From Thermoleptolyngbya sichuanensis A183 (lineage in GTDB: Bacteria > Cyanobacteriota > Cyanobacteriia > Elainellales > Elainellaceae): a DNA stretch of 64,000 nucleotides. The stretch spans positions 62,001 to 126,000 of the forward strand of contig NZ_CP053661.1 in NCBI RefSeq assembly GCF_013177315.1, written 5' to 3'. The notes under the pieces are model-generated. The model did not search any database, had not been told where the DNA came from, and worked only from the letters and a program-made list of their open reading frames with translations. Positions 1-17,236 of the stretch are shown here, one piece after another. A program made the position numbers and the translations under genes. Each line of letters starts with the position of its first letter. The first letter of the stretch is position 1.

Positions 1-111
1 GAACTTCAGCAATTTCGCCAAACGTTGTATGCCAGCTTGGGAAACGCCAGAGATGCCCTGTTTGATCTGATGGATGCCGTGTTAGTGAGTGCGTGCATCG
101 TGTCGTTTGTG
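1..111 (+). repeat. Left arm of a 111-bp inverted repeat
   Basis: Bases 1-111 are the exact reverse complement of 1417-1527. The arm is the 5' coding end of the transposase. It probably extends left of the window, since the other copy continues through the start codon. Confidence 0.9.
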
Positions 112-1302
112 AGGCTATCGCAGAGTCCTGTCTTTCGTCGCCAGTGGTCGAGCACCTATGAAGCGTTGCGCGATAGCCGCCTACCCCGATCAAAGGTGCT
201 GAAGCTGTTGGTGCAGCAGATACCGACTCAGCAGCAACCGTTGTTGGCAGGTGATGCGAGTCGGTGGAACCGTCCTGCTGCCAGGCGTTTGAAAGACCGC
301 ACCTTATCAGGCAGAACAGGACATGCCCCGATAGCCGGACAAAACTACAGTACCTTAGCCTGGATTGCTGAAGACAGGGGCAGTTGGGCATTACCATTGC
401 GGCATGAGCGCATCACCAGCTTTGAAACACCCGCCAGTAAAGCGGCATTCCAACTCAAACAAGTGACTCGGCAGTTAGCGGTGCGTCCGTTGGCGATCTA
501 CGACCGAGGGTACGGCAATGCCAGTTTTGTCAACCAAACGGCAGGGATTGAGGCAGACTTGCTGCTGCGGGTTACATCCAATCGATGTGTCTATGGCGCG
601 CCCCCAGCGTATCGAGGGCGAGGCGCACCTGCCAAGCATGGACATAAGATGAAACTCAATGACCCTGACACTTGGAGTGTCCCGGTCGAAACCGTTGAAG
701 TCGATGATCCCAACTGGGGACGAGTGCGGGTCAGTCGTTGGAGTGCATACCATTTCCGCAAATCCCCCAAACGGGCAATGGAAGTGTTGCGCGTGGAGGT
801 GCTGGAGACACAGAGCAGCACGCGACGCTTGGCTCCTTTGTGGTTAGTTTGGCTGGGTGAGCAGATGCCTCCGTTAGAAACCCTGTGGTTGCACTACCTC
901 CGTCGCTTTGCCATTGAACACTGGTATCGCTTTGCCAAGCAGAGGCTATATTGGACACATCCCCAGTTCAGTTCTGTATCGGCAACCGAACAGTGGAGCA
1001 GCCTGATGCCGTTGCTCAGTTGGCAGTTGTGGTTAGCGCGAAAGGACTGTACTGACCACCCCTTGCCCTGGCAGGCACCGCAAGAAACGTTGACTCCGGG
1101 TCGGGTCGCACAAGCGTTTGCAGGCATTTTGGCAGCGATTGGCACCCCTGCTCCTGCGCCTAAACCTCGTGGTAAATCGCCAGGACGAGGCAAGGGGCAC
1201 AAGCCAACTCCTCGTCCCTGCTATCCGATGGTCAAAAAACGAGCCTCGAAACGCAAGACATCCGAACAATCCCTGAACAGTCCGGTTGCAACAGCAGCTT
1301 AA
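1..1302 (+). CDS. DDE transposase (NF041680-like), 5' end outside window
   Basis: This is a cut-and-paste type DDE transposase of a family common in cyanobacteria. The frame is already open at base 1. The inverted copy at 1342-1539 shows that the native start (M-I-F-N) lies four codons upstream, outside the window; a TTG at 25 is only an internal codon. Candidate catalytic residues, numbered from base 1, are D85 (AGDASRW), D168 (IYDRGYG) and E306 (IEHWYRF), in the usual D-D-E order. The C-terminal 60 residues are rich in Lys, Arg and Pro, as expected for a DNA-binding tail. No stop or frameshift is visible, so it may be active. The exact IS family (IS4/IS701-like) is inferred. Confidence 0.85.
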   Translation, partial: ELQQFRQTLYASLGNARDALFDLMDAVLVSACIVSFVRLSQSPVFRRQWSSTYEALRDSRLPRSKVLKLLVQQIPTQQQPLLAGDASRWNRPAARRLKDRTLSGRTGHAPIAGQNYSTLAWIAEDRGSWALPLRHERITSFETPASKAAFQLKQVTRQLAVRPLAIYDRGYGNASFVNQTAGIEADLLLRVTSNRCVYGAPPAYRGRGAPAKHGHKMKLNDPDTWSVPVETVEVDDPNWGRVRVSRWSAYHFRKSPKRAMEVLRVEVLETQSSTRRLAPLWLVWLGEQMPPLETLWLHYLRRFAIEHWYRFAKQRLYWTHPQFSSVSATEQWSSLMPLLSWQLWLARKDCTDHPLPWQAPQETLTPGRVAQAFAGILAAIGTPAPAPKPRGKSPGRGKGHKPTPRPCYPMVKKRASKRKTSEQSLNSPVATAA

Positions 1303-1341
1303 CTGCGAGCAGGATTGTATCCAATTCCTTAAGTTCAACTG

Positions 1342-1539
1342 TTATGAACGGTTGAGCAGATTCTTTATGGCATCCTGTTGAGCATTATTGTGATGCCAGT
1401 TAGTCCAAACTAAAGTCACAAACGACACGATGCACGCACTCACTAACACGGCATCCATCAGATCAAACAGGGCATCTCTGGCGTTTCCCAAGCTGGCATA
1501 CAACGTTTGGCGAAATTGCTGAAGTTCGTTGAAAATCAT
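1342..1539 (-). pseudogene. Inverted 5' fragment of the neighbouring transposase
   Basis: The first 41 residues of this 65-codon frame (starting M-I-F-N-E-L-Q-Q) are identical to the N-terminus of the transposase at the window start. The remaining 24 residues are unrelated and run to a stop. It is therefore a truncated, inverted copy of the 5' end and not a functional gene. Its value is that it shows the true start of the transposase family. It lies within a segment bounded by two 17-bp direct repeats (1400-1416 and 1614-1630). Confidence 0.8.
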
Positions 1540-4116: not shown

Positions 4117-4125
4117 ACATGCCGC
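4117..4125. repeat. Left 9-bp target site duplication of the ISKra4-type element
   Basis: The sequence acatgccgc directly precedes the left terminal repeat and is repeated exactly at 5308-5316, directly after the right terminal repeat. A perfect pair means a recent insertion. Confidence 0.9.
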
Positions 4126-4222
4126 GGGTGCATCCCAGTTATGCAATGAGTAGAAGTGCTTAGTGCAGATTAAGGGCAGACGCCGTAGGCTCAGAGCAGT
4201 TGCTCTAAGGATAGTTGAAGCG

Positions 4223-4453
4223 ATGGATGCCACCAAGGAAGCCCAAATCAAAGCCCATGCACTGGCGTTAGCGGAGTTGCTTTACGACGAGACAGACCCT
4301 GAACAAGTCAAAACATTGGCCGGGATCGAAGTCGCCGTTCGTGACCACCTACTGGAGTATGTGGGGCCTGAGATCGGAAATTTTTTATCTGCACAAGCAG
4401 CGGCACAAGCTCTGGGCGAAAGCGGCACATCCAGAGTATCGTCGGACGCTTAA
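4223..4453 (+). CDS. ISKra4-family transposase, upstream frame (orfA)
   Basis: A 76-residue N-terminal frame beginning MDATKEAQIKAHALALAELL, typical of ISKra4-family transposases; the ATG at 4223 matches the usual family start. Its normal stop is at 4453. The tail after residue ~53 (SAQAAAQALG...) is an out-of-frame extension. The real continuation lies in the -1 frame through the slippery T_TTT_TTA at 4381-4387. The product by itself would lack all catalytic residues. Confidence 0.8.
   Translation: MDATKEAQIKAHALALAELLYDETDPEQVKTLAGIEVAVRDHLLEYVGPEIGNFLSAQAAAQALGESGTSRVSSDA
4381..4387 (+). promoter_or_regulatory. Programmed -1 frameshift site T_TTT_TTA
   Basis: In the orfA frame the codons read GGA AAT TTT TTA TCT. 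The heptamer TTTTTTA fits the X_XXY_YYZ rule for tandem -1 slippage. After slipping, the reading continues as F-F-I-C-T-S-S-G into orfB with no stop. I did not model a downstream stimulatory structure. Confidence 0.7.
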
Positions 4454-5283
4454 GTCTGAGTCAGCGCCAGAGCCAGCGGCTTAAGGTCAAGGCCCGCACC
4501 CAGTGGAGTCCTCAGGTTGAGACGTGCTGCTTGCTGCTGAGTGCCAACGAAGCCTATGCGCGAGCTGCCGACGATATCGCTGTGCTCACCGGGGTGTGCG
4601 TGTCAGGGAGTACCCAGCAACGGCTGGTGCATCGTCAAGACCTAGAGCCACCAGCGGTGGACAGCGGGGTTAAGGAAATGAGCTTAGACGGGGGCAAAGT
4701 CCGTCTGCGGACTCCTCAGGGGCAGCCCTGCCAGTGGCGCGATTACAAGGGGGTAAACCTGCATCAGTGCAGCATTAGCGCCTTCTACAAAGACAACGAC
4801 AGCTTGGTCAACTGGCTCAACCAGCAGCCCTTAGCGCATCCCCTCGTTTGTCTTGGGGATGGTCACGACGGCATCTGGAACCTGTTTTCACAGATCGGGC
4901 ATCGCAGCGAGCGCCTTGAGATCTTGGACTGGTACCACCTGATGGAGAATTTGGGTAACGTGGGTGGGTCTCAACAGCGTCTTGATGCCGTCGAAGCCTG
5001 CTTGTGGCAAGGGGATGTGGATGGGGCGGTTAGGCTATTCGACGACTGGTCCCATGAGCGGGTAGACCAGTTTATCGGCTATCTGGCTAAGCATCGGCTC
5101 CGTATCGTTAACTACAGCTACTACCAAGCTGAGGGGATTTCAATTGGCTCGGGTGCCGTGGAGTCGACTATCAAGCAAATTGGTAGGCGGGTGAAAATTT
5201 CAGGCGCTCAGTGGAAGGAAGACAACGTTCCACAAGTCCTTCGCCATCGCTGCGCTTATCTCAATGGTCAATTCTCATCCTGA
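4384..5283 (+). CDS. ISKra4-family transposase, catalytic frame (orfB, reached by -1 frameshift)
   Basis: This frame has no good start of its own before 4531, yet it reads meaningful family sequence from 4384 (FFICTSSGTSSGRKR). That fits expression as an orfA-orfB fusion of about 353 residues. Motifs include MSLDGGKVR, CLGDGHDGIWN, LDWYHLMENL and GSGAVESTIKQIGRR, which supply the acidic residues expected of a DDE-type catalytic core. No internal stop or deletion is seen, so the element may still be active. The last codon lies 24 bp before the inner boundary of the right terminal repeat. Confidence 0.85.
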   Translation, partial: FICTSSGTSSGRKRHIQSIVGRLSLSQRQSQRLKVKARTQWSPQVETCCLLLSANEAYARAADDIAVLTGVCVSGSTQQRLVHRQDLEPPAVDSGVKEMSLDGGKVRLRTPQGQPCQWRDYKGVNLHQCSISAFYKDNDSLVNWLNQQPLAHPLVCLGDGHDGIWNLFSQIGHRSERLEILDWYHLMENLGNVGGSQQRLDAVEACLWQGDVDGAVRLFDDWSHERVDQFIGYLAKHRLRIVNYSYYQAEGISIGSGAVESTIKQIGRRVKISGAQWKEDNVPQVLRHRCAYLNGQFSS

Positions 5284-5307
5284 GTCTTGTAAGACTGGGA
5301 TGCACCC

Positions 5308-5714: not shown

Positions 5715-6475
5715 TTGGGTAGCACCTGCTCAATCGCCTCGCTGCGTGGGCGCGCTGTCTGCCCATAAGCTATCTGCCTCATTGTCGTCGTCCAATAAAT
5801 GTCCCAACACTTGCGAATCATGCACTGCTGCATCGGTGACTTGATACTGCCGGATCAAACCATACTCAGCATCGATACTGACGTGGTTTTTGTACCCAAA
5901 ATGGTACACACCTCGTTTCTTCGTCCATCGAGCGTCCGTGTCTTTTTGCGCCAATCGATGCGGCTTGTCCTGCCAATCTTGAGGGATTTCGCCCTGCTTG
6001 AGTTGCTGGTTCTCTGAGTCGCTGTTGTGTTGCTGGGGCACAGGAATTAAGGTCGCATCTACAATCTGCCCTCCTTTGGCAGCATAGCCCTGCTTGATTA
6101 AGTAACCATCGAATTGCTCGAATAACGCCTCAATCAACCCCTGCTCAATCAGTTGTTTGCGAAATAACCAGACGGTTGTTGCATCAGGCACTTCATCGGA
6201 CAAACTAAACCCCGTGAACTGCATGAACGACAGACGGTCACTGACTTGATCTTCCAGTTCCTCATCGCTGATGTTGCACAACTGTTACACAACCAGGCGT
6301 TTGAACATCACCACGACATCGATTGCTTTGCGTCCCGCATTGCTCTTTCGAGCTTTGTTATGGATTTGCTCCAATGTGGGTCGAAAGTTCTCCCAAGGAA
6401 CAATTTGGTTGAGCCGCACCAGTTGAGCCGCACCAATAGATCTTTAGATCTTTTTTCTGCCTCAGTTTGGCTTGG
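5715..6475 (-). pseudogene. Degenerate IS5-family transposase
   Basis: On the minus strand the reading starts near 6475 with Q-I-V-P-W-E-N-F-R-P-T-L-E-Q-I-H-N-K, the typical IS5 N-terminus, and continues through DVVVMFKRLVV. It then hits an in-frame TAA where relatives have Gln (V-V-stop-Q-L-C-N). After this stop the frame is open from about 6281 to 5745, with LSFMQFTGFSLSDEVPD and VDATLIPVPQQ, the first catalytic Asp. Near 5745 a frameshift follows D-S-A; the sister frame continues R-S-E-A-I-E-Q-V-L and homology ends at about 5720. The C-terminal third, with the remaining catalytic residues, is missing. The element is dead. Confidence 0.85.
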
Positions 6476-6693: not shown

Positions 6694-7890
6694 CTAAAGC
6701 CGATCAAAAAGGAGGGGCTGAACACTGCCGTCGGGCAGGATTTCCGGCAGCCACGCATCACCGTGGGGTTCTGTGCCGTCCCACTTGTCGGGGTATGTGC
6801 CCGCTGCGATCAGTTCTTCAATCCGTGTCAGTTCCTCATCGTTAATGAGGCTAAGGGTCGGTCGCCCCAGTCGTTCTGCGGTCTGGTTCACCTCAGCCTG
6901 AATGCCAAGCACCTGCGCCAGCATCCAGCGTCGCGCCTCTAGCGTCAGTGGCCCCAGCCGATTTTGCTTGGCCGCCAGCGACCCGTCTTTGTTGACCTCC
7001 CCATGCTTACGATGGCGATATTGCGGCTTTTTGATTTCCCAATACAGGGGGCGGAGCCGTTGCAGGGGGGCGAGATAGGCCCATTCCGGCTGGGCCACCA
7101 CGCGGTCGAGGGCGGCATCCTTTTGCACCAGTGGACAGCCAATACAGCCCGTACGGGCATTGATCGGCTCCTCGCCATCACTCACATCTTGCCCATACAC
7201 CTTGGCAATTTCAAACGTGGGAAAGCCTAGCTCGACATCTGCCTTCACCAGCCAGTCCCAAACGTGGCAGACGCGCCAGTGAACAATGGGAGCCAGCATA
7301 TCGGCGATCGCCTCTGACGTACTCTGCTGAAACCAGCCCTGTCCGCACTCACCACCATCTTTGGTGCAGCTAAGGGCGATGCGTTGGTCACGGGCGGCGC
7401 TCTCGCCAATCCGCACTCCCGTCATCATTAGGAACTTTTCGCCCCGTTCCTGTCGCAGCACCTCTAGCTCCCGCTCCATGCTCATCACCTTGAGCTTGGG
7501 CGTACACCAGCGGAACGTGTTCGACGGCGGTGGCACTCCCCGACCCAGCATATAGACAAAGTAGCGATAGTCTAGAGCCGGCAAGACCACGCGAGTCGCG
7601 AACCCGCGCCGCTCCAGTTCCTTCAGAATTTCCAGTGCCGCCAAGTGTAATGGCGGTAGCTCTTGGCGCGTGTCGGCGTAGAGGATGGTGAGGGTTTTGG
7701 GGCGAGGGATTTGCCCTGTCTCTATCAGGTGGGCGATCAGGGTGACGGTTGCAGAAGAATCTTTGCCGCCCGAAAAAGATACTGCCCAGTGCTTGTACAG
7801 CGAACCGCAATGACACAGCGACTCTACCGATAGCGCAATGCTTTTCGACAGGGTCAGGCGTTCTTCTTCAAATAGACTCAGGGGGTTCAT
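6694..7890 (-). CDS. DndC-like PP-loop ATPase / iron-sulfur protein (PAPS-reductase superfamily)
   Basis: A 398-residue member of the PAPS-reductase/ATP-pyrophosphatase superfamily, most like DndC, which activates DNA for sulfur incorporation in phosphorothioation. The PP-loop is SGGKDSS at residues 40-46; LYADTRQELPP (70-80) follows. GVRIGESAARDQR (158-170) resembles the DndC GVR-x2-ES-x2-R motif. Cysteines C129 (RWCTPKL), C175, C182, C249 and C252 (TGCIGC) are candidate Fe-S ligands. ATG 7890 (MNPLSLFEEE) is the likely start; an ATG 12 codons upstream looks weaker. It is transcribed divergently from a phosphorothioation-associated methyltransferase, which supports the Dnd reading. No dndB, dndD or dndE lies nearby. 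A plain PAPS/adenylylsulfate reductase is a less likely alternative. Confidence 0.75.
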   Translation of the reverse strand: MNPLSLFEEERLTLSKSIALSVESLCHCGSLYKHWAVSFSGGKDSSATVTLIAHLIETGQIPRPKTLTILYADTRQELPPLHLAALEILKELERRGFATRVVLPALDYRYFVYMLGRGVPPPSNTFRWCTPKLKVMSMERELEVLRQERGEKFLMMTGVRIGESAARDQRIALSCTKDGGECGQGWFQQSTSEAIADMLAPIVHWRVCHVWDWLVKADVELGFPTFEIAKVYGQDVSDGEEPINARTGCIGCPLVQKDAALDRVVAQPEWAYLAPLQRLRPLYWEIKKPQYRHRKHGEVNKDGSLAAKQNRLGPLTLEARRWMLAQVLGIQAEVNQTAERLGRPTLSLINDEELTRIEELIAAGTYPDKWDGTEPHGDAWLPEILPDGSVQPLLFDRL

Positions 7891-8246
7891 CAACCACGCT
7901 TTTGCATCCTCTGTCCCCCTAACCATAGCAAAAACTGGAAGCTTTGCGCTAGATATAGAGTCCGGAAGACTAAATATGAATTCTGAAGCGCTAGAGGAGT
8001 CTGAACGTTTTAAGTATAAGTATACTCAAATTCATCGTGCATTTCAAGTGCCTTCCAACTCATTCGCCAGTTATTCGCTGCAAGCACTGCGCCTCAAGTT
8101 AAGAGCTAATTTATGAAGCAAATCTTAAGAAGCCTGAAACTCTTGGCATGTGTGGCTTTGAGGTCATGTTTGCCCAGGAAAAGCGGTTTCTCGGAAATCC
8201 TTGATTAACAAGGCTTTCAGGCTCCTTTACAAATTAGCTCTAAGGA
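7891..8246. other. Divergent promoter region of the Dnd-like pair
   Basis: About 355 bp between two divergent starts. The right 140 bp (8102-8241) are an inverted-repeat-bounded element. A 46-codon frame starting at 7976 on the plus strand (MNSEALEESERF...) has no recognised relatives and is not called. Promoters for both genes should lie here, but I see no clear -35/-10 pair. Confidence 0.4.
8102..8241. repeat. Inverted-repeat-bounded 140-bp element (MITE-like)
   Basis: The ends agagctaattt (8102-8112) and aaattagctct (8231-8241) are perfect 11-bp inverted repeats. A second, imperfect inner match follows (agcctgaaactctt near 8130 and aaggctttcaggctcc near 8210). The inner motif resembles the agcctgaaaccct core of the dispersed repeats at 5366 and 22679. 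The right arm ends just before the aagga that precedes the methyltransferase ATG. Confidence 0.6.
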
Positions 8247-10415
8247 ATGCCCTATGCTGGGTTTAGCGACTGGGTGAGCTTCATGAACCGCTTAGAGTCA
8301 GCACTATACCCCCCAAAGTCAAACGCCCCAAAGCCAAACGTTTCAAAGCCAGCAGATCAGGCGATTGCTTCAGATTTTGCCGAAATTGTGAATTGCGTAA
8401 ATCGCAGCCCAATTGGCAAGCGGCTTCCGACTTCGCTCTACGTTCATCTCTCGGCGCTCCCAGCCCTAGAGCGATCGCTCCAAAATTATGAAACCCTGGC
8501 GCGTCAGCAGGTGCAACCCCAAACTCAGCTAGACGGGGCAACGCTCGTCAAGTTCAATACTGACCAACCCAAGGTATCTTATCTGGCTTACCCTGAGTTT
8601 GAGACCGATGCCCATCCCGCCTTATCCTGGAGCATTCAGGTTGATCTAGCTACAGCGCAAGTCACGATTCGTAACTATAGCCGCACTGATAACCCGCCAG
8701 TGCTGCATCGCAAGGAGACTTTTGTCACCGCTGACTATCCGCTGTACGAGCGTTTTGTAGAACTGACTCGTCAGGAAGAGGCACTCGGGCTACTCAATCA
8801 ATCGCGGGAAATTGGCACCCGTGAGGGCTGGGCAAAGCGTCTGCTGGACTGCCGGATCGAGATTCATGGCCATGTCCTAGCTTGTCCGGTTGCTCAAATC
8901 CCTGGAGTTGCTCAGCCCAAAATCGAGCGCCACAAAGCTGCCCTCGTCCGCAACGAGCTTTCCAAGCCCGTGAGGATTGCGCTAGAGGCGGGATTATTTA
9001 CCCCTGGCGCGACCTTCTTTGACTATGGCTGTGGGCATGGGAGCGACGTAGAGCGCGTGGGCGATCGCGGCTACACCAGTTCTGGCTGGGACCCCTACTA
9101 TCGTCCTGATTCTGCCTGTACATCGGCTGATATCGTCAACCTGGGTTATGTCATCAACGTCATCGAAGACCCGGCAGAACGACGAGAGGCATTGCTCAAA
9201 GCCTGGGAACTGACCAGGAAGGTGCTGATTGTCGCCGCGCAAGTGCTGATTGAAGACTCGACACGCGGCATGATGGCCTACGGGGATGGGGTGATTACCC
9301 GCCGCAATACGTTCCAGAAGAATTACAGTCAGGAGGAACTGAAAAGTTATATCGACCAGGTGCTGGGCGTGGACGCAATCCCGGTTGCGCTGGGCATCTA
9401 CCTGGTGTTTCGGGACGAGGCTCAGGCGCAGACGTTCCGGGTTTCCCGATGGCGATCGCGTGCCACGACTCCCAGAGTCAAAGCCAGCGTCAAGCGATTT
9501 GAGCAGTATAAGGAAATGCTGGCTCCCCTGATGGCATTTTTCACCGACCGGGGACGGTTGCCCATTGAGGAGGAACTTCAGGAGTTTGCGGCGCTGCAAT
9601 CGGAATTTGGAACGCTACGACGCGCCTTCCAGTTGGTTCTTCAGGCAACAGAGCGTCAGGAATGGGATGCCATCAGCGAGAAGCGCCGCCAGGATTTGCT
9701 GGTTTATCTTGCCCTCAGTCATTTTGGCACGCGCCCAAAACTGCGCCATCTCGCCCCCATCGTTCAGCACGATATTAAGGCATTATTTGGCAGCTACCAG
9801 CAAGCCTGTACCGCAGCAGATTTGATGCTGCTGCGCTTGGGGAATTGGGAAGTGATGGCAGAGCGGTGTCAGTCCAGCGCGATTGGCAAAAAGCTATCGA
9901 ACTCCCTCTGGGTTCATGTCTCTGCCTTGGATGCGCTCGATCCCCTGCTTCGGCTTTACGAGGGCTGTGCCTCTCGCACGATTGGTCGCCCCGAAGAAGC
10001 AACATTGGTCAAGTTTCATACTCGCAAGCCCAAAATTTCTTACCTGTTCTATCCAGACTTCGATCGCGACCCGCACCCCTGTCTCCGCACCAGTATGCAG
10101 ATTGACTTGCAAGATCTACACGTCAGCTATCGGGATTACGATCCAGAAGATAACCCACCTGTGTTGCATCAAAAGGAGTTGCTGGTGCAGCCCGACTATC
10201 CGCTCTATGAAAAGTTTGCCAAACTGAGTCAGCAGGAGGCAGATTGGGGGCTATTGGATGATTTGAGTAAGATCCGAGATCGCTGGGGATGGCAGAAATG
10301 CCTGGAAGAACACTGTGCGGCGTTGAAGGGTCATCGGGTCGTGTGGCGGAAGGATGCTGATCCATATCGGGTGAAGCTGATGCAGTCTGCTAGACGGCAA
10401 TTCCGCGAAGTATGA
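8247..10415 (+). CDS. DNA phosphorothioation-associated putative methyltransferase
   Basis: A 722-residue protein with the architecture of the TIGR04096-type methyltransferase found in Dnd islands. A central Rossmann domain carries the SAM motif FDYGCGHGSD at about 257-266, and a later conserved run reads YVINVIEDPAERREAL. On both sides lies the same roughly 120-residue module. The N-terminal copy starts SPIGKRLPTSLYVHLSAL (about 50) and the C-terminal copy SAIGKKLSNSLWVHVSAL (about 548). Both contain TLVKF-x-T-x2-PK-x-SYL, NPPVLH-x-KE and DYPLYE. The start is uncertain: ATG 8247 directly follows aagga, while ATG 8283 (MNRLESAL) has a ggtgag upstream. It probably acts on or near phosphorothioated DNA together with the divergent DndC-like gene. 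Its target base is unknown. Confidence 0.8.
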   Translation: MPYAGFSDWVSFMNRLESALYPPKSNAPKPNVSKPADQAIASDFAEIVNCVNRSPIGKRLPTSLYVHLSALPALERSLQNYETLARQQVQPQTQLDGATLVKFNTDQPKVSYLAYPEFETDAHPALSWSIQVDLATAQVTIRNYSRTDNPPVLHRKETFVTADYPLYERFVELTRQEEALGLLNQSREIGTREGWAKRLLDCRIEIHGHVLACPVAQIPGVAQPKIERHKAALVRNELSKPVRIALEAGLFTPGATFFDYGCGHGSDVERVGDRGYTSSGWDPYYRPDSACTSADIVNLGYVINVIEDPAERREALLKAWELTRKVLIVAAQVLIEDSTRGMMAYGDGVITRRNTFQKNYSQEELKSYIDQVLGVDAIPVALGIYLVFRDEAQAQTFRVSRWRSRATTPRVKASVKRFEQYKEMLAPLMAFFTDRGRLPIEEELQEFAALQSEFGTLRRAFQLVLQATERQEWDAISEKRRQDLLVYLALSHFGTRPKLRHLAPIVQHDIKALFGSYQQACTAADLMLLRLGNWEVMAERCQSSAIGKKLSNSLWVHVSALDALDPLLRLYEGCASRTIGRPEEATLVKFHTRKPKISYLFYPDFDRDPHPCLRTSMQIDLQDLHVSYRDYDPEDNPPVLHQKELLVQPDYPLYEKFAKLSQQEADWGLLDDLSKIRDRWGWQKCLEEHCAALKGHRVVWRKDADPYRVKLMQSARRQFREV

Positions 10416-10584
10416 TCAATTGGAACAGAGGACGGAGCAAGTGGAGCGCATTCTCATGTCTAGAGTCAGGCGATCGCAGTCGCATGGCAAATTCTAGCCT
10501 GACTTACGATCGCAATCACAAAGCTCAGATCTAAGCGACCAACACCCCAAAAAACCGCACTAATCGCCCTCGGCGCAGTAGACG

Positions 10585-12843
10585 ATGGACTTGTTTGAGC
10601 AGCATCGACAGCAGATCACCGCCGCCGAAGCGCCCCTAGCGGCTCGAATGCGGCCGCGCACCCTAGCAGAATACATTGGGCAGGAGCATATCTTGGGCGA
10701 GGGGCGACTGCTGCGCCGTGCTATTCAGGCAGACCAGCTTTCGTCGCTGATTTTCTACGGGCCGCCGGGAACGGGTAAAACGACGCTGGCGATGGTGATT
10801 GCTAACACGACCCGCGCCCGCTTTCTGTCGATTAACGCAGTGCTAGCGGGGGTGAAGGAGATTCGAGAGGCGATCGCCCTTGCCCAGGAGACCCGTGGCA
10901 TGTACGGTCAGCGCACGATTCTGTTTGTGGACGAGGTGCATCGATTTAACAAATCTCAGCAAGATGCGCTGCTACCTTGGGTGGAAAACGGCACGGTGAT
11001 CCTGATCGGCGCAACGACCGAGAATCCCTACTTTGAGGTGAATAAGGCGCTAGTCAGCCGTTCGCGGGTGTTTCAACTCAAGCCGCTAACGGAACAGGAC
11101 TTGGAACGAGTGCTGGATCAGGCATTACAGGAGGGCGATCGCGGCTATGGAACGCGACAGGTTCAGATTGATCCAGACGCTCGCACGCATCTGATCAACG
11201 TTGCCAATGGCGATGCTCGCACATTGCTGAACGCGCTGGAACTCGCCGTTGAAACCACGCCTGCGAATTCAGAGGGGACGATTCACGTCACGCTGGAGGT
11301 TGCTGAAGAATCGATTCAGAAACGGGCGGTTTTATACGATAAGGAAGGCGATGCCCACTTCGACACCATCAGTGCCTTTATCAAAAGCCTGCGCGGTTCC
11401 GACCCGGACGCGGCCCTCTATTGGCTGGCCCGCATGGTCTACGCAGGCGAAGATCCGCGCTTTATCTTTCGGCGGATGCTGATCCTGGCGGGCGAAGATG
11501 TGGGCATGGCCGACCCCAATGCCGTGGTCGTTGTCCATGCCTGCGCCGAAGCCTTTGACCGGGTGGGGATGCCGGAGGGTCGCTATCCGCTGGCCCAGGC
11601 GGCGTTGTATCTGGCGACCTGCCCCAAATCCAACAGCGTCATGGCGTTTTTTGATGCGCTGGCGGCGGTGGAACGCGAACGCGAAGCCGAAGTGCCGACC
11701 CACCTGCGCGATGCCAACCGAGACAAAGACGGTTTTGGACATGGCAAGGGCTATCTCTATCCCCATTCCTATCGGGAGCATTGGGTGGCGCAGCAGTATC
11801 TTCCAGGCAGCTTGCAGGGGCAAGTCTTCTATCAACCGTCGGAGCAGGGCTACGAGGGGCGCATTCAGCAGGACGTGGCGCGGCGGCGCGAGGCGCAATT
11901 GGCGGCGCTGGTGGAGGGTGTGGGCGTGGCGCTGCCGGAGGTGCTGACCTTTGGCCCGGCCGATGCGGGCGTAGAGCGGTGGCTGCAACGGACGCTGAGC
12001 CAGTCTGGGGAACGGCTGGCCCAGGTGCGCGATCGCCTCTTTGCGCTGGCTCCGCCCCAGCGGCATCACCTGATTCTCGACCTGAATGCGGGCAGTGGCT
12101 TGTTGACGTGGGAGGCAGTGCGGCTCGTTCCCGAAGGCGGAGTCTACGCCTGTGCGCCCCAGCAGCAGGATGCAGCCGCGCTGCAAGAACAGTCGGCCGC
12201 GCTGCCGGAACTGCTGCGTCCCGTTGTGCTGCACAGCGCGATCGCCGATTTACCCGCTGTGCTACACGCCGAGTGTCCAAGCCTGCGTTTCGAGCGGCTC
12301 ATGGGTCGGAACGTGTTTTTGAATGCGATCGCCCCTCCCGACACCTGGCTCCAAGCCTGGAAATTGCTGCTGCAACCTGAAGGGTATCTGCTCCTGGCAG
12401 AGACAATACCTCGTCATACGCAGCGCCTGCACCAGCTCATTCCCTCAGACCGCATTCCATCCAGGCTACTGAATCGCTGGCGCAAGGCGGAGGAACAGCT
12501 TTACGAAAGCGCCGCGGTCTGGAGCATGACCTGGAATGTACAAGACCTGGAAACGCTATTTGATCAAGCAGGGTTCACCGCAGAGATTGCGCTGGAACAC
12601 ACGCAAACGGAACTGCTGATTTCACCCGCGCTGATTGACCGCTGGTTTGCATCTGCCAGTGCCAAGCCCACCTATGCGGAACAGATCCGCGAATTCCTCT
12701 CGGATGCAGATCTGAACCAAATTCAGACGCTATTACGCCAATGCTTGAGCCACCAGACAGTGCAGTGGCAGGGAGCGATCGCCTTCGTCAAAGCCCAGTC
12801 AAAGCCCAGCCCAAGCCCTGCCCAAGTCCAGCCCAAGCCCTAA
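10585..12843 (+). CDS. rarA: RarA/MgsA-type AAA ATPase fused to a methyltransferase-like domain
   Basis: Residues 1-430 are a replication-associated recombination protein A, a clamp-loader-like AAA+ ATPase that acts at stalled replication forks. Walker A is GPPGTGKT at 59-66, Walker B ILFVDEVHRF at 112-121 (D116, E117), sensor 1 GATTENP, and the C-terminal RarA part includes GEDVGMADPNA. Residues from about 440 to 745 are an added domain with HLILDLNAGSGLLTWEA near 492, which looks like SAM-binding motif I. Stand-alone RarA is usually near 430-450 residues, so this is a fusion; similar long forms are familiar in cyanobacteria. The final 20 residues are a P/K/Q-rich tail. It is probably independent of the Dnd-like pair 170 bp upstream. 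Confidence 0.88.
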   Translation: MDLFEQHRQQITAAEAPLAARMRPRTLAEYIGQEHILGEGRLLRRAIQADQLSSLIFYGPPGTGKTTLAMVIANTTRARFLSINAVLAGVKEIREAIALAQETRGMYGQRTILFVDEVHRFNKSQQDALLPWVENGTVILIGATTENPYFEVNKALVSRSRVFQLKPLTEQDLERVLDQALQEGDRGYGTRQVQIDPDARTHLINVANGDARTLLNALELAVETTPANSEGTIHVTLEVAEESIQKRAVLYDKEGDAHFDTISAFIKSLRGSDPDAALYWLARMVYAGEDPRFIFRRMLILAGEDVGMADPNAVVVVHACAEAFDRVGMPEGRYPLAQAALYLATCPKSNSVMAFFDALAAVEREREAEVPTHLRDANRDKDGFGHGKGYLYPHSYREHWVAQQYLPGSLQGQVFYQPSEQGYEGRIQQDVARRREAQLAALVEGVGVALPEVLTFGPADAGVERWLQRTLSQSGERLAQVRDRLFALAPPQRHHLILDLNAGSGLLTWEAVRLVPEGGVYACAPQQQDAAALQEQSAALPELLRPVVLHSAIADLPAVLHAECPSLRFERLMGRNVFLNAIAPPDTWLQAWKLLLQPEGYLLLAETIPRHTQRLHQLIPSDRIPSRLLNRWRKAEEQLYESAAVWSMTWNVQDLETLFDQAGFTAEIALEHTQTELLISPALIDRWFASASAKPTYAEQIREFLSDADLNQIQTLLRQCLSHQTVQWQGAIAFVKAQSKPSPSPAQVQPKP

Positions 12844-12884
12844 TCTAAACATTTAAAGTGTATTTAAAGTGTCTAGGGCTAAAT

Positions 12885-13556
12885 CTAGGGCTGACCCGCA
12901 GGCGGTAGCGTCGGAGTGCGAGGAGTGGTCTGACCTGCGCCAGCGCCACCCGGTTGGGCAGGACCGCCGCCATTGCTGCGGGGCAGCGGTGCAGCAGGCG
13001 TTCCCAGCGGATCACCCGGCACGGTCGGCAAGCCAAAGGGATCGAGCGGCGTTCCTGGATTTCCCAGACCAGGATTATTCAACCCTGACGCTCCACCGGG
13101 CGTTGAAAAGCCAGGTTGACCCGGTGCAAACTGGTCGGTTGGCTCTTGGGTACTGGGCGTGACGGCCAGCGCCACGCGATCGCCCCCCACGGCCCGCAGC
13201 AAGTCCAGCACCCGCACCACGCTGTCGTAGCTGGCGTAGGGCGGCGCATTCAGCACGATCGTTCCATCGGGCGACTCTTGCTGAAACTGCTGCACCAACT
13301 GCACCAAGCGCGCCTCGTCCACCGGGTCTTCATCCCAGTACAGCGTGCCCACTGGGTCGATCGTCACAATTTTGGTTTGTCGCATCTGGGCGACACCCGT
13401 AGAAGCCCTGGGCAAATCGGTGTTAATCGCAAACTGGCGCGTCAGCGACACCGCCGCCAAGATAAAGAAAGTGAGGATACAAAAGATCACGTCGATCAGC
13501 GGAATTAGCTCGATCCGCACGTCGTCTTGCTGCGATCCGGGGTTGAGGATTTTCAT
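12885..13556 (-). CDS. exbD: ExbD/TolR-family biopolymer transport protein
   Basis: A 223-residue partner of the ExbB/TolQ proton channel. The N-terminal segment DDVRIELIPLIDVIFCILTFFI (about 11-32) has the conserved membrane helix with the proton-bearing Asp in PLIDV. A periplasmic domain follows to about residue 140 (VVRVLDLLRAVGGDRVALAV). The last 75 residues are Pro/Gly/Asn-rich and probably disordered, longer than in E. coli ExbD (about 141 residues). It lies 74 bp downstream of exbB in the same direction, so the two form an operon. They should energise an outer-membrane TonB or Tol-like process; no tonB gene is in the window. Confidence 0.88.
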   Translation of the reverse strand: MKILNPGSQQDDVRIELIPLIDVIFCILTFFILAAVSLTRQFAINTDLPRASTGVAQMRQTKIVTIDPVGTLYWDEDPVDEARLVQLVQQFQQESPDGTIVLNAPPYASYDSVVRVLDLLRAVGGDRVALAVTPSTQEPTDQFAPGQPGFSTPGGASGLNNPGLGNPGTPLDPFGLPTVPGDPLGTPAAPLPRSNGGGPAQPGGAGAGQTTPRTPTLPPAGQP

Positions 13557-13630
13557 AGCCAGCGGTTTGGAGAAACGTTAGGGAGATGGGGTGAGACAGC
13601 CCCTGTGCTGAAACGGGCGGGCTAAAACCC

Positions 13631-14344
13631 TCAGGACGGCTCTGCGGCTTCGGCGCTGGTGCCCGAAGGGTCTGGGGCGATCGCGCTGGAGTTGACCCGT
13701 TTGGCGATGCGTCCGGCATCCTGACTACTCCAGGTTTTGCGATAGAGCAGTTCTAGCTCGTTGCCCGCCTTTTGGAAAATCTTGGCCTGTTGAGCAATCA
13801 GCCCTTGAAACACGCGATAGAAAGCCAGCGACAGAATCGCGATAATCAGCCCCGTGGCGGTGGTAATCAGCGCTTCAGAAATGCCCAGCGTCACGTTTTC
13901 TGTCGCCGTCGTGCCCAGATCGCCCAGCCGAATCGAGCCGAGGGAGTTGATCAGCCCCAGCACCGTTCCCAGCAGACCCAGCAGCGGGGCGATCGCAATC
14001 ACGGCTTCCAAAATCTTGTCGCCCTTGTGCATGGCGGCGAGTTCTTCCTGGGCGCTGGCTTCCATCGCCAACTGCACCACGTCCGGCTCCTGGTCTTTTA
14101 GCTCCAGACCCGCATTCAAAAAGCGCCCAATCGGCTGATCGATGGCGCTGCGGGCCAAATCTCCCGCCGATCGCCAGTCGCGCTGGGCTGCTTCTAGCAC
14201 CCGTCCGGCAGTTTCTCGTTCACGGGTCAAAATTTTCCACCAAAAGAGGACGCGCTCGATCACCACCGTTAGCGACAGGATCGAGAGCAGCAGCAGCGGC
14301 CACATCACAAAGCCGCCCTTAGAAAAAAGCTCACCAATGTTCAC
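13631..14344 (-). CDS. exbB: MotA/TolQ/ExbB proton channel family protein
   Basis: A 237-residue inner-membrane protein. The first helix is at about 12-34 (MWPLLLLSILSLTVVIERVLFWW). The second and third are near 114-135 (IAIAPLLGLLGTVLGLINS) and 150-175 (ISEALITTATGLIIAILSLAFYRVF), matching ExbB/TolQ topology. APLLGLLGTVLG and the Thr-rich EALITTATGL are the family's channel motifs. With ExbD it forms a proton-driven motor complex. It is first in the operon with exbD. The C-terminal 35 residues are Ser/Ala/Pro-rich and not conserved. Confidence 0.9.
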   Translation of the reverse strand: MNIGELFSKGGFVMWPLLLLSILSLTVVIERVLFWWKILTRERETAGRVLEAAQRDWRSAGDLARSAIDQPIGRFLNAGLELKDQEPDVVQLAMEASAQEELAAMHKGDKILEAVIAIAPLLGLLGTVLGLINSLGSIRLGDLGTTATENVTLGISEALITTATGLIIAILSLAFYRVFQGLIAQQAKIFQKAGNELELLYRKTWSSQDAGRIAKRVNSSAIAPDPSGTSAEAAEPS

Positions 14345-14660
14345 AGTATTTTTTGTCCTCCATCCATGACTGGTGGGTACGCGAATCGGGAGGGGTTCTG
14401 GCTTAAAATCCGGTATCCGCTCCAGGCCGTCTCAATTTTAGAGAATTTTTAGCAACCTTTCCCAATCCGGTTTCAAGAGAGTCGATGAAAAGCGCTGAAG
14501 GGCTTGATTTTCCAGAGATTTTCTCAGTCTGGCATCCTTCAAAGATGGCTTTCGACCGCTCCCTTTTGCCCCCTCCTGGCAGCAAGACGTAACGCAAGGG
14601 GCTTGAGTTCTGGGTTAGACGACCCTTTAAGATTTTGGGCAAAGCTGGGCACTCTGGAGA

Positions 14661-14726
14661 AAACTTTGGGCAGAAGGCTTTGGGCAGAAGCTTTGGGCAG
14701 AAACTTTGGGCAGAAACTTTGGGCAG
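14661..14726. repeat. Tandem repeat, 5 x 13-14 bp
   Basis: Five units of consensus aaactttgggcag with one-base length differences, followed by a degenerate unit. It lies in the exbB/TPR divergent spacer. Confidence 0.9.
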
Positions 14727-14760
14727 AAAACTTGGGGTATGGGTGCAGCCTGACTGAATT

Positions 14761-14830
14761 TGACCATTCCTGCTTAACCATTTCTGCCTCACAATTTCTG
14801 CCTGACCATTCCTGCCTGACCATTTCTGCT
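14761..14830. repeat. Tandem repeat, 5 x 14 bp
   Basis: Five units of consensus tgaccatttctgcc with small differences, then a partial unit. It starts only 34 bp after the preceding, unrelated array. Confidence 0.85.
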
Positions 14831-14923
14831 TCTGCTTGACAATTGCCAGACCGGAAGCGGTAATTTGCTCACTGGACTCGCTCCTGAACTGAACTCGCCA
14901 CTACTGAATCATGGGGAAATATC

Positions 14924-16435
14924 ATGGGGAAAACCGCGATGCATCGAGCGCAACGACTTTATCCTGCTCATCTACCGTCCCAACCTCTCCCGTCTCAGCC
15001 TCGATTCTTCCAACCAGCTTTGACGCGATCGCCCCATCGAAGCTGCCCTTCCACCCAGCGGTCAGGGGTGCGCGGTTCTCTGGTTGCAGGGCTGGCGGCG
15101 CTGTGGCTGGGCGGACTGGGACTGGCAGGGGCGATCGCCCAACCCGTGCCCCAGGCGGCGCAGCGGGCCTACGACAGCGGCGTTGCCAAGCTCAACAATC
15201 GCGACTACAGCGGCAGCATCGCCGACTTTACCCAGGCCCTCAGCTTTAGCCCCAGCAGCGCCGCCATCTATGCCATGCGGGGCGCGGCCTACGCTGGGTT
15301 GGGTCAGTTTGAACCGGCGATCGCCGACTACACCACTGCCCTACAACTCAACCCCACCTACGCCGATGTCTATTTCAATCGCGGCGTGGCATATTACAGC
15401 GTCGGCAATGCCAGCGCCGCCCTCAGCGACTTTAACCAGGCAGCCCAGCTTACGCCAAACCGGGCTGAGGTATCTCTCTTCCAGGGGCGGGCCCGGGCGG
15501 CAACGGGCGACCTCGACGGGGCGATCGCCGCCTTGAATCAGGCCATCGCGCTCCAGGCAAATTATCCCGAAGCCTACCTGAATCGCGGCGTGGTGCGGGC
15601 GCGACAGGGCAACCACGATGCCGCGATCGCCGACTATGACCAGGCGATCCGCCAGCGCTCGAACTATGCCGATGCCTACCTCAACCGGGGCAGTTCCCGC
15701 TTTGCCCAGGGCGACCTAGAAGCGGCCCTGCGGGACTTTAACGAGGCCGTCGCCAAAGACAATACCTCCGCCGTGGCCTATTTCAACCGGGGCTATGCGG
15801 CGGGAACCCTGGGCGATCGCCGCGCTGCCCTGTCCGACTTTAACCAGGCAATTCGGCTTGATCCGGGCTATACGGCTGCCTATATGAACCGGGGCGTGCT
15901 GCGGGCTGCAGGTGGCGACCTGGACGGAGCCATGAGCGACCTCAACCAGGCCGTGTCGCTGTCGCCAGACTATGCCCCCGCCTACAAAGCCCGCGCCGAC
16001 GTGCTGATGCAGATGGGCGAACCGCAGCGGGCGATCGCCGACTATACCCGCGCCATCGAGCGTCAGCCCAACAGTGCCAGCCTGATGATGGCCCGCGCCG
16101 AGGCCCGTCTGTCCCAGAGCGATTTTGCTGGGGCCGCCCAAGACTTGACTCAGGCGATCGCCCTCGAACCCAATAACGCCCAGGTCTATGGCAAACGCGG
16201 CGCAGTGCGGCTGCGGCTAGGCGATGCCCGCAGTGCCCTCAACGACCTCAACCAGGCAACCCGGCTCAACCCGCAAGATGCCGACAGTTTCTATCACCGG
16301 GGGATTGCCAAACGGCGGCTGGGCGATCGCGCTGGGGCACTGGCCGACCTGCGCCAGTCTGCCGAGCTATATCGCCAGCAGAGCCGCGCCGAGGGCTACC
16401 GAAATGCGATCGCCGAAATGTCAGCTCTCCAATGA
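14924..16435 (+). CDS. Exported TPR-repeat protein
   Basis: A 503-residue protein made almost entirely of tetratricopeptide repeats. A Lys/Arg-rich leader precedes a hydrophobic segment near 50-72 (GSLVAGLAALWLGGLGLAGAIA), which is a late signal peptide or anchor. From about residue 80 there are roughly 12 repeats of 34 residues with the signature A-x-x-D-[FY]-[NDT]-Q-A-[IL]-x-L-x-P and YxNRGxxR. Such repeats form a protein-binding superhelix; no catalytic domain is present. The start is ambiguous: ATG 14924 or ATG 14939 (MHRAQRL) give nearly the same protein. The partner is unknown. The gene converges with the TraX-like gene. Confidence 0.85.
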   Translation: MGKTAMHRAQRLYPAHLPSQPLPSQPRFFQPALTRSPHRSCPSTQRSGVRGSLVAGLAALWLGGLGLAGAIAQPVPQAAQRAYDSGVAKLNNRDYSGSIADFTQALSFSPSSAAIYAMRGAAYAGLGQFEPAIADYTTALQLNPTYADVYFNRGVAYYSVGNASAALSDFNQAAQLTPNRAEVSLFQGRARAATGDLDGAIAALNQAIALQANYPEAYLNRGVVRARQGNHDAAIADYDQAIRQRSNYADAYLNRGSSRFAQGDLEAALRDFNEAVAKDNTSAVAYFNRGYAAGTLGDRRAALSDFNQAIRLDPGYTAAYMNRGVLRAAGGDLDGAMSDLNQAVSLSPDYAPAYKARADVLMQMGEPQRAIADYTRAIERQPNSASLMMARAEARLSQSDFAGAAQDLTQAIALEPNNAQVYGKRGAVRLRLGDARSALNDLNQATRLNPQDADSFYHRGIAKRRLGDRAGALADLRQSAELYRQQSRAEGYRNAIAEMSALQ

Positions 16436-16468
16436 GCTGGGTCTGGGGTGGAGGCGATGGGCTGGGGG

Positions 16469-17236
16469 CTAGCCTGCTGGACGGTTCAGCCCAAACGCAG
16501 CTAGCCCAATCAGTCCAATATGGGCGGGATAAAACCAGTAAAACCATCGCGCCTTGGGGCCGCGCTCGTGGTTCGCACAGGCGAAGATCAGGGCAGCAAA
16601 CCCCGCGAGAAACTGAAGATTTCCCGGCATGACCACCACCGTCAGGGCGGTGAAAATGCACCACACCGTCCACCACAGCGGCGTTGGCTTGTAGTTGCCG
16701 AGCAGCGCAATCAAAGCAATGCCATAGGCATCGTAGTTAAAGGTCGCCAACTCAGCGGCGATCGCCCCCACCAGCCAGATCAGCACTGCCCAACGGGGCC
16801 ACTGCCGCGCCGCCCGCAAACACAGCAAGCCCAGCAGCAGCGTAAATAAAATATTGAAATCCTCAAATAGCGCAATCCCAAAGGTGAGTTGATAAATCGG
16901 CTGCGACAGGATTGCCATCCCCAGCAGCCGCAGCGCATACTGGCGAAAATTTTGCGTGTGGGACTCGCCCTGCACCAGCAGCCATGCAAACAGCGGAAAA
17001 CTGAGCCGTCCCAAGCCATAGCAGAGCATGGCCCAGTCCGTCTCGCGCAAAAAGACGTAACCGACGTGATCGATCACCATCAGCCCCGCCGCCAGCAGCT
17101 TGATCTGGTAATTGGTCAGCGTTGCAAAACGTGCCGAAAGGTCTGAAGACACAGTGCTAAATCTAGATTTACCTGAGAGTTTCCAATCTGAAAGTCTGGC
17201 CAGGAAATTAGGGGTTTCGCTACTAGGCAACCTCAA
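16469..17236 (-). CDS. TraX-family integral membrane protein
   Basis: A 255-residue polytopic membrane protein with the TraX family opening, LTNYQIKLLAAGLMVIDHVG near residue 40, and LGRLSFPLFAWLLVQG near 73-88. Six to eight hydrophobic segments follow. F-plasmid TraX acetylates pilin, and the wider family is related to acyltransferase-3-type membrane proteins. Chromosomal cyanobacterial copies have no conjugation genes around them, as here. The job is therefore unknown, perhaps acylation of an exported substrate. The first 37 residues are polar and not part of the fold. Confidence 0.75.
   Translation of the reverse strand: MRLPSSETPNFLARLSDWKLSGKSRFSTVSSDLSARFATLTNYQIKLLAAGLMVIDHVGYVFLRETDWAMLCYGLGRLSFPLFAWLLVQGESHTQNFRQYALRLLGMAILSQPIYQLTFGIALFEDFNILFTLLLGLLCLRAARQWPRWAVLIWLVGAIAAELATFNYDAYGIALIALLGNYKPTPLWWTVWCIFTALTVVVMPGNLQFLAGFAALIFACANHERGPKARWFYWFYPAHIGLIGLAAFGLNRPAG

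What the first reader, a model, noticed from the sequence alone, without database searches (positions are those of the whole stretch)
6694..10415. Two-gene divergent DndC-like / phosphorothioation-associated methyltransferase locus without DndB, D or E
A DndC-like PP-loop/Fe-S protein and the TIGR04096-type methyltransferase stand back to back, with no dndB, dndD or dndE within the window. On one side is a dead IS5-like transposase, on the other the rarA fusion. This is either a decayed phosphorothioation island or a minimal system in which sulfur activation is coupled to methylation. DndC alone is not known to modify DNA; DndA can be replaced by a chromosomal desulfurase, but DndD/E are normally needed.
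Basis: partly seen in the sequence, partly recalled or inferred. Interest (0 to 1): 0.72.

Follow-up and report, generated by a model that had tools for sequence, protein, structure and literature searches.

The report
Phage-type DndC relative beside a methyltransferase
A cyanobacterium carries two back-to-back genes, a virus-type relative of a DNA-sulfur-adding enzyme and a methyltransferase, that most likely remain from a larger DNA-sulfur defence island whose core genes this genome has lost.

Summary
In detail: both ORFs are intact and back to back, and the one-contig genome shows no DndB, DndD, DndE or canonical DndC. The 6694-7890 protein is not DndC proper. It belongs to a sister family found in phages, plasmids and bacterial contigs (phrog_12882), with the PP-loop motif but without DndC's extra cysteine pair and C-terminal DndD-docking part. 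Its partner is a TIGR04096 methyltransferase, tied in cyanobacteria to phosphorothioation genes (72 of 82 genomes also have DndD; 6 of the other 10, this one included, have an SspB-like gene). The divergent pair with both genes full length was found in 10 cyanobacterial genomes or loci; in 8 the island also holds dndE and dndD. The window's genome and one relative (G304) have no DndD. The genome's SspBCD island is broken by an IS identical to one beside the pair. Best reading: remnant of a dnd island that lost dndCDE. Against recent death, both genes show constraint like that in dnd-bearing relatives. A self-sufficient two-gene system is not excluded, but methylases were not enriched next to phage members.

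The parts
6694..7890 (-). phage-type DndC-like PP-loop protein, 398 aa (ORF open from 7926)
7891..8246 (.). 356-bp divergent intergenic region, similar by eye to that of genome G058
8247..10415 (+). TIGR04096 phosphorothioation-associated putative methyltransferase, 722 aa, with an N-terminal stretch that matches the C-terminal part of the model a second time
5730..6281 (-). truncated IS5-family transposase, on the side where relatives carry dndE-dndD
4125..5307 (+). ISKra4-family element, 100% identical over 1182-1183 bp to two copies in the genome's broken Ssp island
10585..12843 (+). rarA-type AAA ATPase fusion (NF009881): neighbour, edge of the remnant

Best explanation
The two genes are what is left of a cyanobacterial DNA-phosphorothioation (dnd) island. 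Related genomes carry the island as TIGR04096 methyltransferase <- -> DndC-like, then dndE and dndD and, in 5 of 8, a canonical dndC (full in three, cut by a contig end in one, with an in-frame stop in one); HARE-HTH, HNH and helicase genes occur in several. SHOWN: gene content, intact ORFs, absence of DndB/D/E and canonical DndC in this genome, recurrence of the pair inside dnd islands, family assignment, cysteine and C-terminal differences. INFERRED: in complete islands the DndC-like protein takes sulfur from a cysteine desulfurase onto an Fe-S/cysteine centre, activates its target with ATP as PP-loop enzymes do, and hands sulfur to DNA located by DndD/DndE, as a second or substitute DndC; the methyltransferase marks DNA or a partner in the same pathway. 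In this genome, without DndD/E and with SspC interrupted, phosphorothioation is probably not made, and the pair is a residue with intact enzymes but no known DNA-handling partner.
For: Full-length back-to-back pair in 10 genomes or loci (G000, G169, G301, G304, G306, G319, G320, L159, L160, L161); dndE and dndD in the island in 8 (the DndD of L161 has one in-frame stop), no DndD in G000 and G304 (the genome of L160 is not held, so it is judged on its 17-kb locus). G058 shows a further stage: DndC-like cut to 344 aa beside a transposase, plus a stub of a CxC-type ABC ATPase. G304 has no dndE, dndD or dndC in its locus and no DndD or canonical DndC in the genome (DndE not searched genome-wide), but keeps HNH and helicase genes beside the pair. 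TIGR04096 tracks phosphorothioation genes: 72 of 82 genomes with DndD, 6 of the other 10 with DUF4007/SspB, G000 being one of the 6. In the window genome the other island is IS-broken: SspC split by ISKra4, copies 100% identical to the one beside the pair. In G169, L160 and L161 the DndC-like protein stands with dndE/dndD and without a full canonical DndC; between G169 and L160 DndD, DndC-like and MTase show dN/dS 0.17, 0.08 and 0.10. A HARE-HTH gene follows the DndC-like gene in 5 loci: G301, G306, G319, G320, L158 (Pfam checked for two of them).
Against: Both genes are intact. The DndC-like protein departs from conserved columns at 0 of 75. Branch ratios (dN over raw pS) on the G000 branch are 0.15-0.20 for DndC-like and 0.19-0.29 for MTase, like those of the dnd-bearing relatives G306, G319 and G320, so there is no sign of relaxed constraint. 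No fragment of dndC, D or E was found in the window (tblastn to 1e-3), so the loss is inferred from relatives. In L159, G301 and G319 the DndC-like gene sits beside a full canonical DndC, so it is not simply a replacement. L158 has the DndC-like gene without the MTase.
Confidence: 0.6

Rival explanations
1. A self-sufficient two-gene DNA (or RNA) modification system: the DndC-like enzyme thiolates a base or backbone without DndD/E, and the methyltransferase methylates the thio group or the same site.
For: Intact, constrained pair without DndD in G000 and G304. No DndD/E was labelled beside the non-cyanobacterial members in the loci examined. The model's nearest folds include [4Fe-4S] tRNA thiolases NcsA and TtuA among other PP-loop enzymes.
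Against: 8 of 10 full-length pairs sit in islands with dndE and dndD. Methylases are not enriched next to non-cyanobacterial members (12 matches in 88 vs 8 in 93, Fisher p 0.35). The window's TIGR04096 protein has no Pfam DNA-methylase hit.
Confidence: 0.15
2. Split DndC: in some relatives the phage-type protein supplies the catalytic half and a leftover C-terminal piece of canonical DndC supplies the DndD-docking half.
For: G169 and L160 keep open frames of 141 and 138 codons covering about the last 100-130 residues of DndC. By position these include the modelled DndD-docking region of DndC (residues 433-482 and the C-terminal helix of the 540-aa E. coli B7A protein; PMC12193691, passages). 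The phage-type protein lacks this region.
Against: The piece evolves loosely (dN/dS 0.41 over 98 codons against 0.08-0.17 for its neighbours) and is frameshifted in L202. It was not found in G000, where there is no DndD either.
Confidence: 0.12
3. The pair works in trans with the genome's SspBCD genes, supplying sulfur or methyl groups to that system.
For: The window MTase lies in a clade of 9 that includes Ssp-linked MTases of G169, G278 and G195. SspB and SspD ORFs are open in this genome.
Against: SspC is interrupted by an IS near residue 965 and lies 1.5 Mb away; no cysteine desulfurase matched in the 20 kb fetched.
Confidence: 0.08
4. The 6694-7890 protein is an ordinary assimilatory PAPS reductase that happens to lie beside an unrelated methyltransferase.
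For: PF01507 label.
Against: Clade 100/99 sister to DndC and apart from CysH (with a long-branch warning); SGGKDS PP motif; no NCBIfam hit named CysH; the genome has another PF01507 protein that groups with E. coli CysH; the pair recurs in 10 genomes or loci.
Confidence: 0.01

Closest known systems
DndC (TIGR03183), sulfurtransferase of DndABCDE
   Same: PP-loop SGGKDS motif; three shared cysteines (RWC and GCxxC); found in dnd islands
   Different: The two further cysteines of DndC are present in 0 of 25 DndC-like rows; own cysteines 175, 182, 208 (25 of 25, against 0 of 21 in DndC); no C-terminal region; median 400 against 521 aa; score far below the cut-off
phrog_12882 phage 'PAPS reductase'
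   Same: Full-length match, 485.5 bits; 49-54% identity to phage and plasmid proteins over 90-98% of the length
   Different: In cyanobacteria it is divergent to TIGR04096, in or left from a dnd island
TIGR04096 dnd_rel_methyl
   Same: 886.6 bits over the whole model
   Different: Long form with a second, N-terminal match to part of the model; no DndD/E in this genome
SspBCD / BREX type 4 PP-loop proteins (SspD, BrxP)
   Same: PP-loop sulfur enzymes; some Ssp-linked MTases are near kin of the window MTase
   Different: SspD rows form a separate clade; weak PADLOC scores: SspD 33, BrxP 41 bits; BrxP was not in the tree

Membership tests
DndC (TIGR03183) | curated score of at least 290.4 bits | tested here: not met
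   135.4 bits for the protein, 134.4 in the genome search
DndC (TIGR03183) | PP-loop ATP-pyrophosphatase motif | tested here: met
   SGGKDS present; 24 of 25 DndC-like and 20 of 21 DndC rows
DndC (TIGR03183) | five invariant cysteines incl. the DndC-only dyad | tested here: not met
   three shared; the dyad is present in 0 of 25 DndC-like rows, three other cysteines instead
DndC (TIGR03183) | C-terminal DndD-docking region | tested here: not met
   match to the DndC model ends at profile 358 of 447; 398 aa long (docking region from PMC12193691, passages)
DndABCDE modification system | DndD and DndE in the genome | tested here: not met
   none found in the one-contig genome
DndABCDE modification system | phosphorothioate in DNA | not testable with these tools
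   needs iodine cleavage or LC-MS
phrog_12882 | full-length profile match | tested here: met
   residues 21-407, profile 10-403 of 404, E 2e-145
Assimilatory PAPS reductase (CysH) | groups with CysH | tested here: not met
   separate clade, 100/99; CysH rows sit on long branches
TIGR04096 dnd_rel_methyl | curated score of at least 150 bits | tested here: met
   886.6 bits
TIGR04096 dnd_rel_methyl | methyltransferase activity | not testable with these tools
   an FDYGCGHG motif, taken as SAM-binding from recall, is seen in the alignment; the model of this domain is poor
SspABCD | intact SspB, SspC, SspD in the genome | tested here: not met
   SspC split by ISKra4; SspB and SspD open

The most novel reading that the evidence does not exclude
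The phage-type DndC relatives are a separate DNA-sulfur enzyme family that can act without DndD/E, and the back-to-back DndC-like/TIGR04096 pair kept in this genome and in G304 is a compact sulfur-plus-methyl modification system that cyanobacterial dnd islands captured and can shed their dndCDE core around.
Probability: 0.15. Interest if true: 0.85.

Novelty: new variant of a known kind. Interest (0 to 1): 0.5.

Why it matters
It sets apart a phage-type sister family of DndC with a different cysteine set and no DndD-docking end, and shows it settled inside cyanobacterial phosphorothioation islands, sometimes beside canonical DndC and sometimes with canonical DndC missing. Rakesh et al. [quoted passage not shown] these islands make that testable. 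It also ties the TIGR04096 methyltransferase, for which I found no study under that name, to both Dnd and Ssp systems in numbers.

Tried and rejected
PP-loop plus methylase module: the first nine phage and plasmid neighbourhoods suggested it. I tested it on 54 loci (of 100 with a focal score over 300, 94 are outside the cyanobacterial clade; rows over 80% identical were dropped; a neighbour could be called in 44 upstream and 44 downstream). Summing three DNA-methylase families of Pfam among the 25 most frequent listed, there are 12 matches in 88 immediate neighbours and 8 in 93 genes three or four steps away, p 0.35. My simple gene calling may miss neighbours, and a protein matching two families would count twice. 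I dropped the claim.

Simple displacement of DndC by the phage-type protein: first read from G169; L159, G301 and G319 carry both, G306 has canonical DndC cut by the contig end, G320 has it with a stop. Downgraded.

Relaxed selection in this genome as proof of death: not found.

Fold of the methyltransferase: alignment too shallow (5 rows), pLDDT 62, no Foldseek match under E 0.001, best VIA-align Z 6.0. Solved relatives by sequence: none for the DndC-like protein alone at E 0.1, one weak FAD synthase hit by profile.

Pair as one inherited unit: MTase identity G000-G058 is 85% against 62-64% to G169; DndC-like 79% against 76%, so partners were probably exchanged; the G058 DndC-like gene differs in GC3, so I make no firm claim. 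Fisher values ignore kinship of the genomes.

Print: TIGR04096 by name gave one incidental listing; 'DndC-like', 'DndC family', 'DndC paralog' gave none; broader searches are. Only open-access PMC papers are held; of the eight papers opened I saw passages, and of one also the outline.
Full report
What is there. On the minus strand at 6694-7890 is a 398-aa PP-loop protein (the ORF is open to 7926, but its two nearest relatives aligned begin at or one residue before the methionine at 7890). On the plus strand at 8247-10415 is a 722-aa protein. They stand back to back across 356 bp. The first matches PF01507 (35.7 bits), the DndC model below its cut-off (135.4 against 290.4) and the phage family phrog_12882 over its full length (485.5 bits). 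The second matches TIGR04096 at 886.6 bits. The flanks are a truncated IS5 transposase and an ISKra4 on one side, and a rarA-type fusion on the other.

The genome. The window is part of a one-contig 5.53-Mb cyanobacterial genome. Searches found no DndD, DndE, DndB or canonical DndC. The PF01507 search finds three PP-loop proteins: one that groups with CysH, this one, and an SspD at 1.575 Mb. The last lies in an SspB-SspC-SspD island (best PADLOC scores 410, 1302 and 391 bits) where SspC is split near residue 965 by an ISKra4. The ISKra4 copies there and beside the pair are 100% identical over 1182-1183 bp, so that IS moved recently. The only two DUF4007/SspB matches in the genome are in that island. 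No complete phosphorothioate writer was found.

What the PP-loop protein is. In a tree of 61 PP-loop proteins the 25 DndC-like rows form one clade (100/99) beside DndC, apart from SspD and CysH/CysD; the CysH branches are long and the program warns of it. Against 21 canonical DndC rows it shares three cysteines (129, 249, 252), lacks two that all 21 have (0 of 25) and has three of its own (175, 182, 208; 25 of 25 against 0 of 21). Median length is 400 against 521 aa. This fits what is printed for DndC: Cys146, 280 and 283 shared with APS reductase, Cys262 and 273 conserved in DndC only, and, in a predicted model, DndD docked by residues 433-482 and the last helix (PMC12193691, passages). The phage-type proteins lack both special features. 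Named phages and plasmids hold relatives at 49-54% identity over 90-98% of the length. Beyond the cyanobacterial clade the best bacterial contig is 59% (a Ktedonobacteraceae MAG) and the best IMG/VR contigs 71% and 58%; 64 viral loci and the best 80 of 398 genome loci were fetched, distant ones included. Whether the bacterial ones are prophages was not tested. The model (pLDDT 85.5) has the PP-loop ATPase fold: ATP sulfurylase chain 1zun_A Z 15.4 (rmsd 6.5 over 181), yeast PAPS reductase Z 14.0 (3.2 over 198), NcsA thiolase Z 13.1 (4.5 over 203).

What the partner is. TIGR04096 exceeds its cut-off in 82 of 291 cyanobacterial genomes, DndD in 73; 72 genomes have both, and one DndD genome lacks TIGR04096. 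Of the 10 with TIGR04096 but no DndD over the cut-off, 6 have DUF4007/SspB, the window's genome among them, and 4 do not (G015, G056, G058, G157). In a tree of 56 MTase rows (three duplicates dropped) the window's MTase is sister to that of G058 and lies in a clade of nine with the other five DndC-like-linked MTases of that tree and the Ssp-linked ones of G169, G278 and G195 (G195 by coordinates). In Trinickia mobilis a relative is fused to a domain whose homologue is a separate gene near the MTase in several cyanobacteria. No Pfam family names that domain at its cut-off.

Islands in relatives. In G169 the order is MTase(-), DndC-like(+), DndE(-), DndD(-), with no canonical DndC in the genome but a C-terminal leftover of it. 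Nodosilinea FACHB-131 (L159) has the same order plus a full canonical DndC. L160 and L161 have dndE and dndD without a full canonical dndC; the DndD of L161 has one in-frame stop. In the window's own family, G301 and G319 carry the pair with dndE, dndD and full dndC; G306 has dndC cut by the contig end and G320 has it with a stop. G304 has the intact pair with no DndD in the genome, HNH and helicase genes still beside it. G058 has a shortened DndC-like protein and a stub of a CxC ATPase. So the full-length pair was seen in 10 genomes or loci, 8 of them with dndE and dndD in the island. Others are broken or cut by contig ends (L195, L202, G337, G340), G309 has a broken DndC-like gene and its MTase on another contig, and some hold only fragments of the DndC-like gene (L163, G307, G308, G325). 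L158 has the full gene but no MTase in its locus. The one other genome of the genus that was searched has neither gene (85% complete).

Dead or alive. The window's DndC-like protein departs from conserved columns at 0 of 75. On the G000 branch the ratio of dN to raw pS is 0.15-0.20 for DndC-like and 0.19-0.29 for MTase, as in dnd-bearing relatives. So there is no sign of decay, but the date of the dndCDE loss is unknown and may be recent. These are simple counting estimates, with synonymous sites near saturation in many pairs.

How it probably works. Inferred from the family: a cysteine desulfurase loads sulfur; the PP-loop enzyme activates the target with ATP and transfers sulfur, DndD/E or another factor choosing the DNA. 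A HARE-HTH gene follows the DndC-like gene in 5 loci (two checked with Pfam); Rakesh et al. propose a modification-discriminating role for HARE-HTH fused to restriction domains (PMC10853773, passages). In the window's genome the DNA-handling partners are missing, so I read the pair as a residue, with a self-sufficient function as the bold alternative.

Evidence against the bold alternative. Methylases are no more common right beside the non-cyanobacterial members than three or four genes away (12 matches in 88 against 8 in 93).

Verdict. Observation confirmed; interpretation partly supported; new variant of a known kind.

Noticed in passing
L081 (G000:C1:1565500-1585499), 7628-16812: SspB-SspC-SspD island of the same genome, SspC split by ISKra4, further transposases, a second DUF4007 protein and, beyond it, split helicase-like pieces.
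   Followed up: partly
L074 about 12.0-12.4 kb (-) and L160 about 14.0-14.5 kb (-): Leftover C-terminal piece of canonical DndC as an open frame of 141 and 138 codons (stop to stop), just after a small upstream ORF.
   Followed up: partly
L235:4106-6679 (Trinickia mobilis); L074:4433-5056; L075:6420-7031; L076:3360-3974; L028-L031, L033, L249, L263: TIGR04096-like MTase fused to a domain of about 200 aa that is a separate gene near or next to the MTase in cyanobacteria; peptidase M15-like by eye only, no Pfam match at cut-off.
   Followed up: partly
L285:7426-8172, L284:13613-14359, L283:13051-13794, L286:7342-8061: A 248-aa protein without a Pfam match (one of the four scanned) lies between MTase and DndC-like in four genomes (G306, G304, G301, G319).
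   Followed up: no
L075 (G169:C2:84000-103999): Second TIGR04096 MTase of G169 stands divergently beside SspB-SspC-SspD, DGQHR and cysteine desulfurase genes.
   Followed up: partly
L094:1811-7203: An IMG/VR contig with two DndC-like genes, one 71% identical to the window's, next to a protein resembling by eye the radical-SAM protein near the G058 pair.
   Followed up: no
window 1-1416: Second IS (425-aa transposase ORF at 25-1302), 99.9-100% identical over 1416 bp to two copies in the Ssp island: another recent mover.
   Followed up: partly
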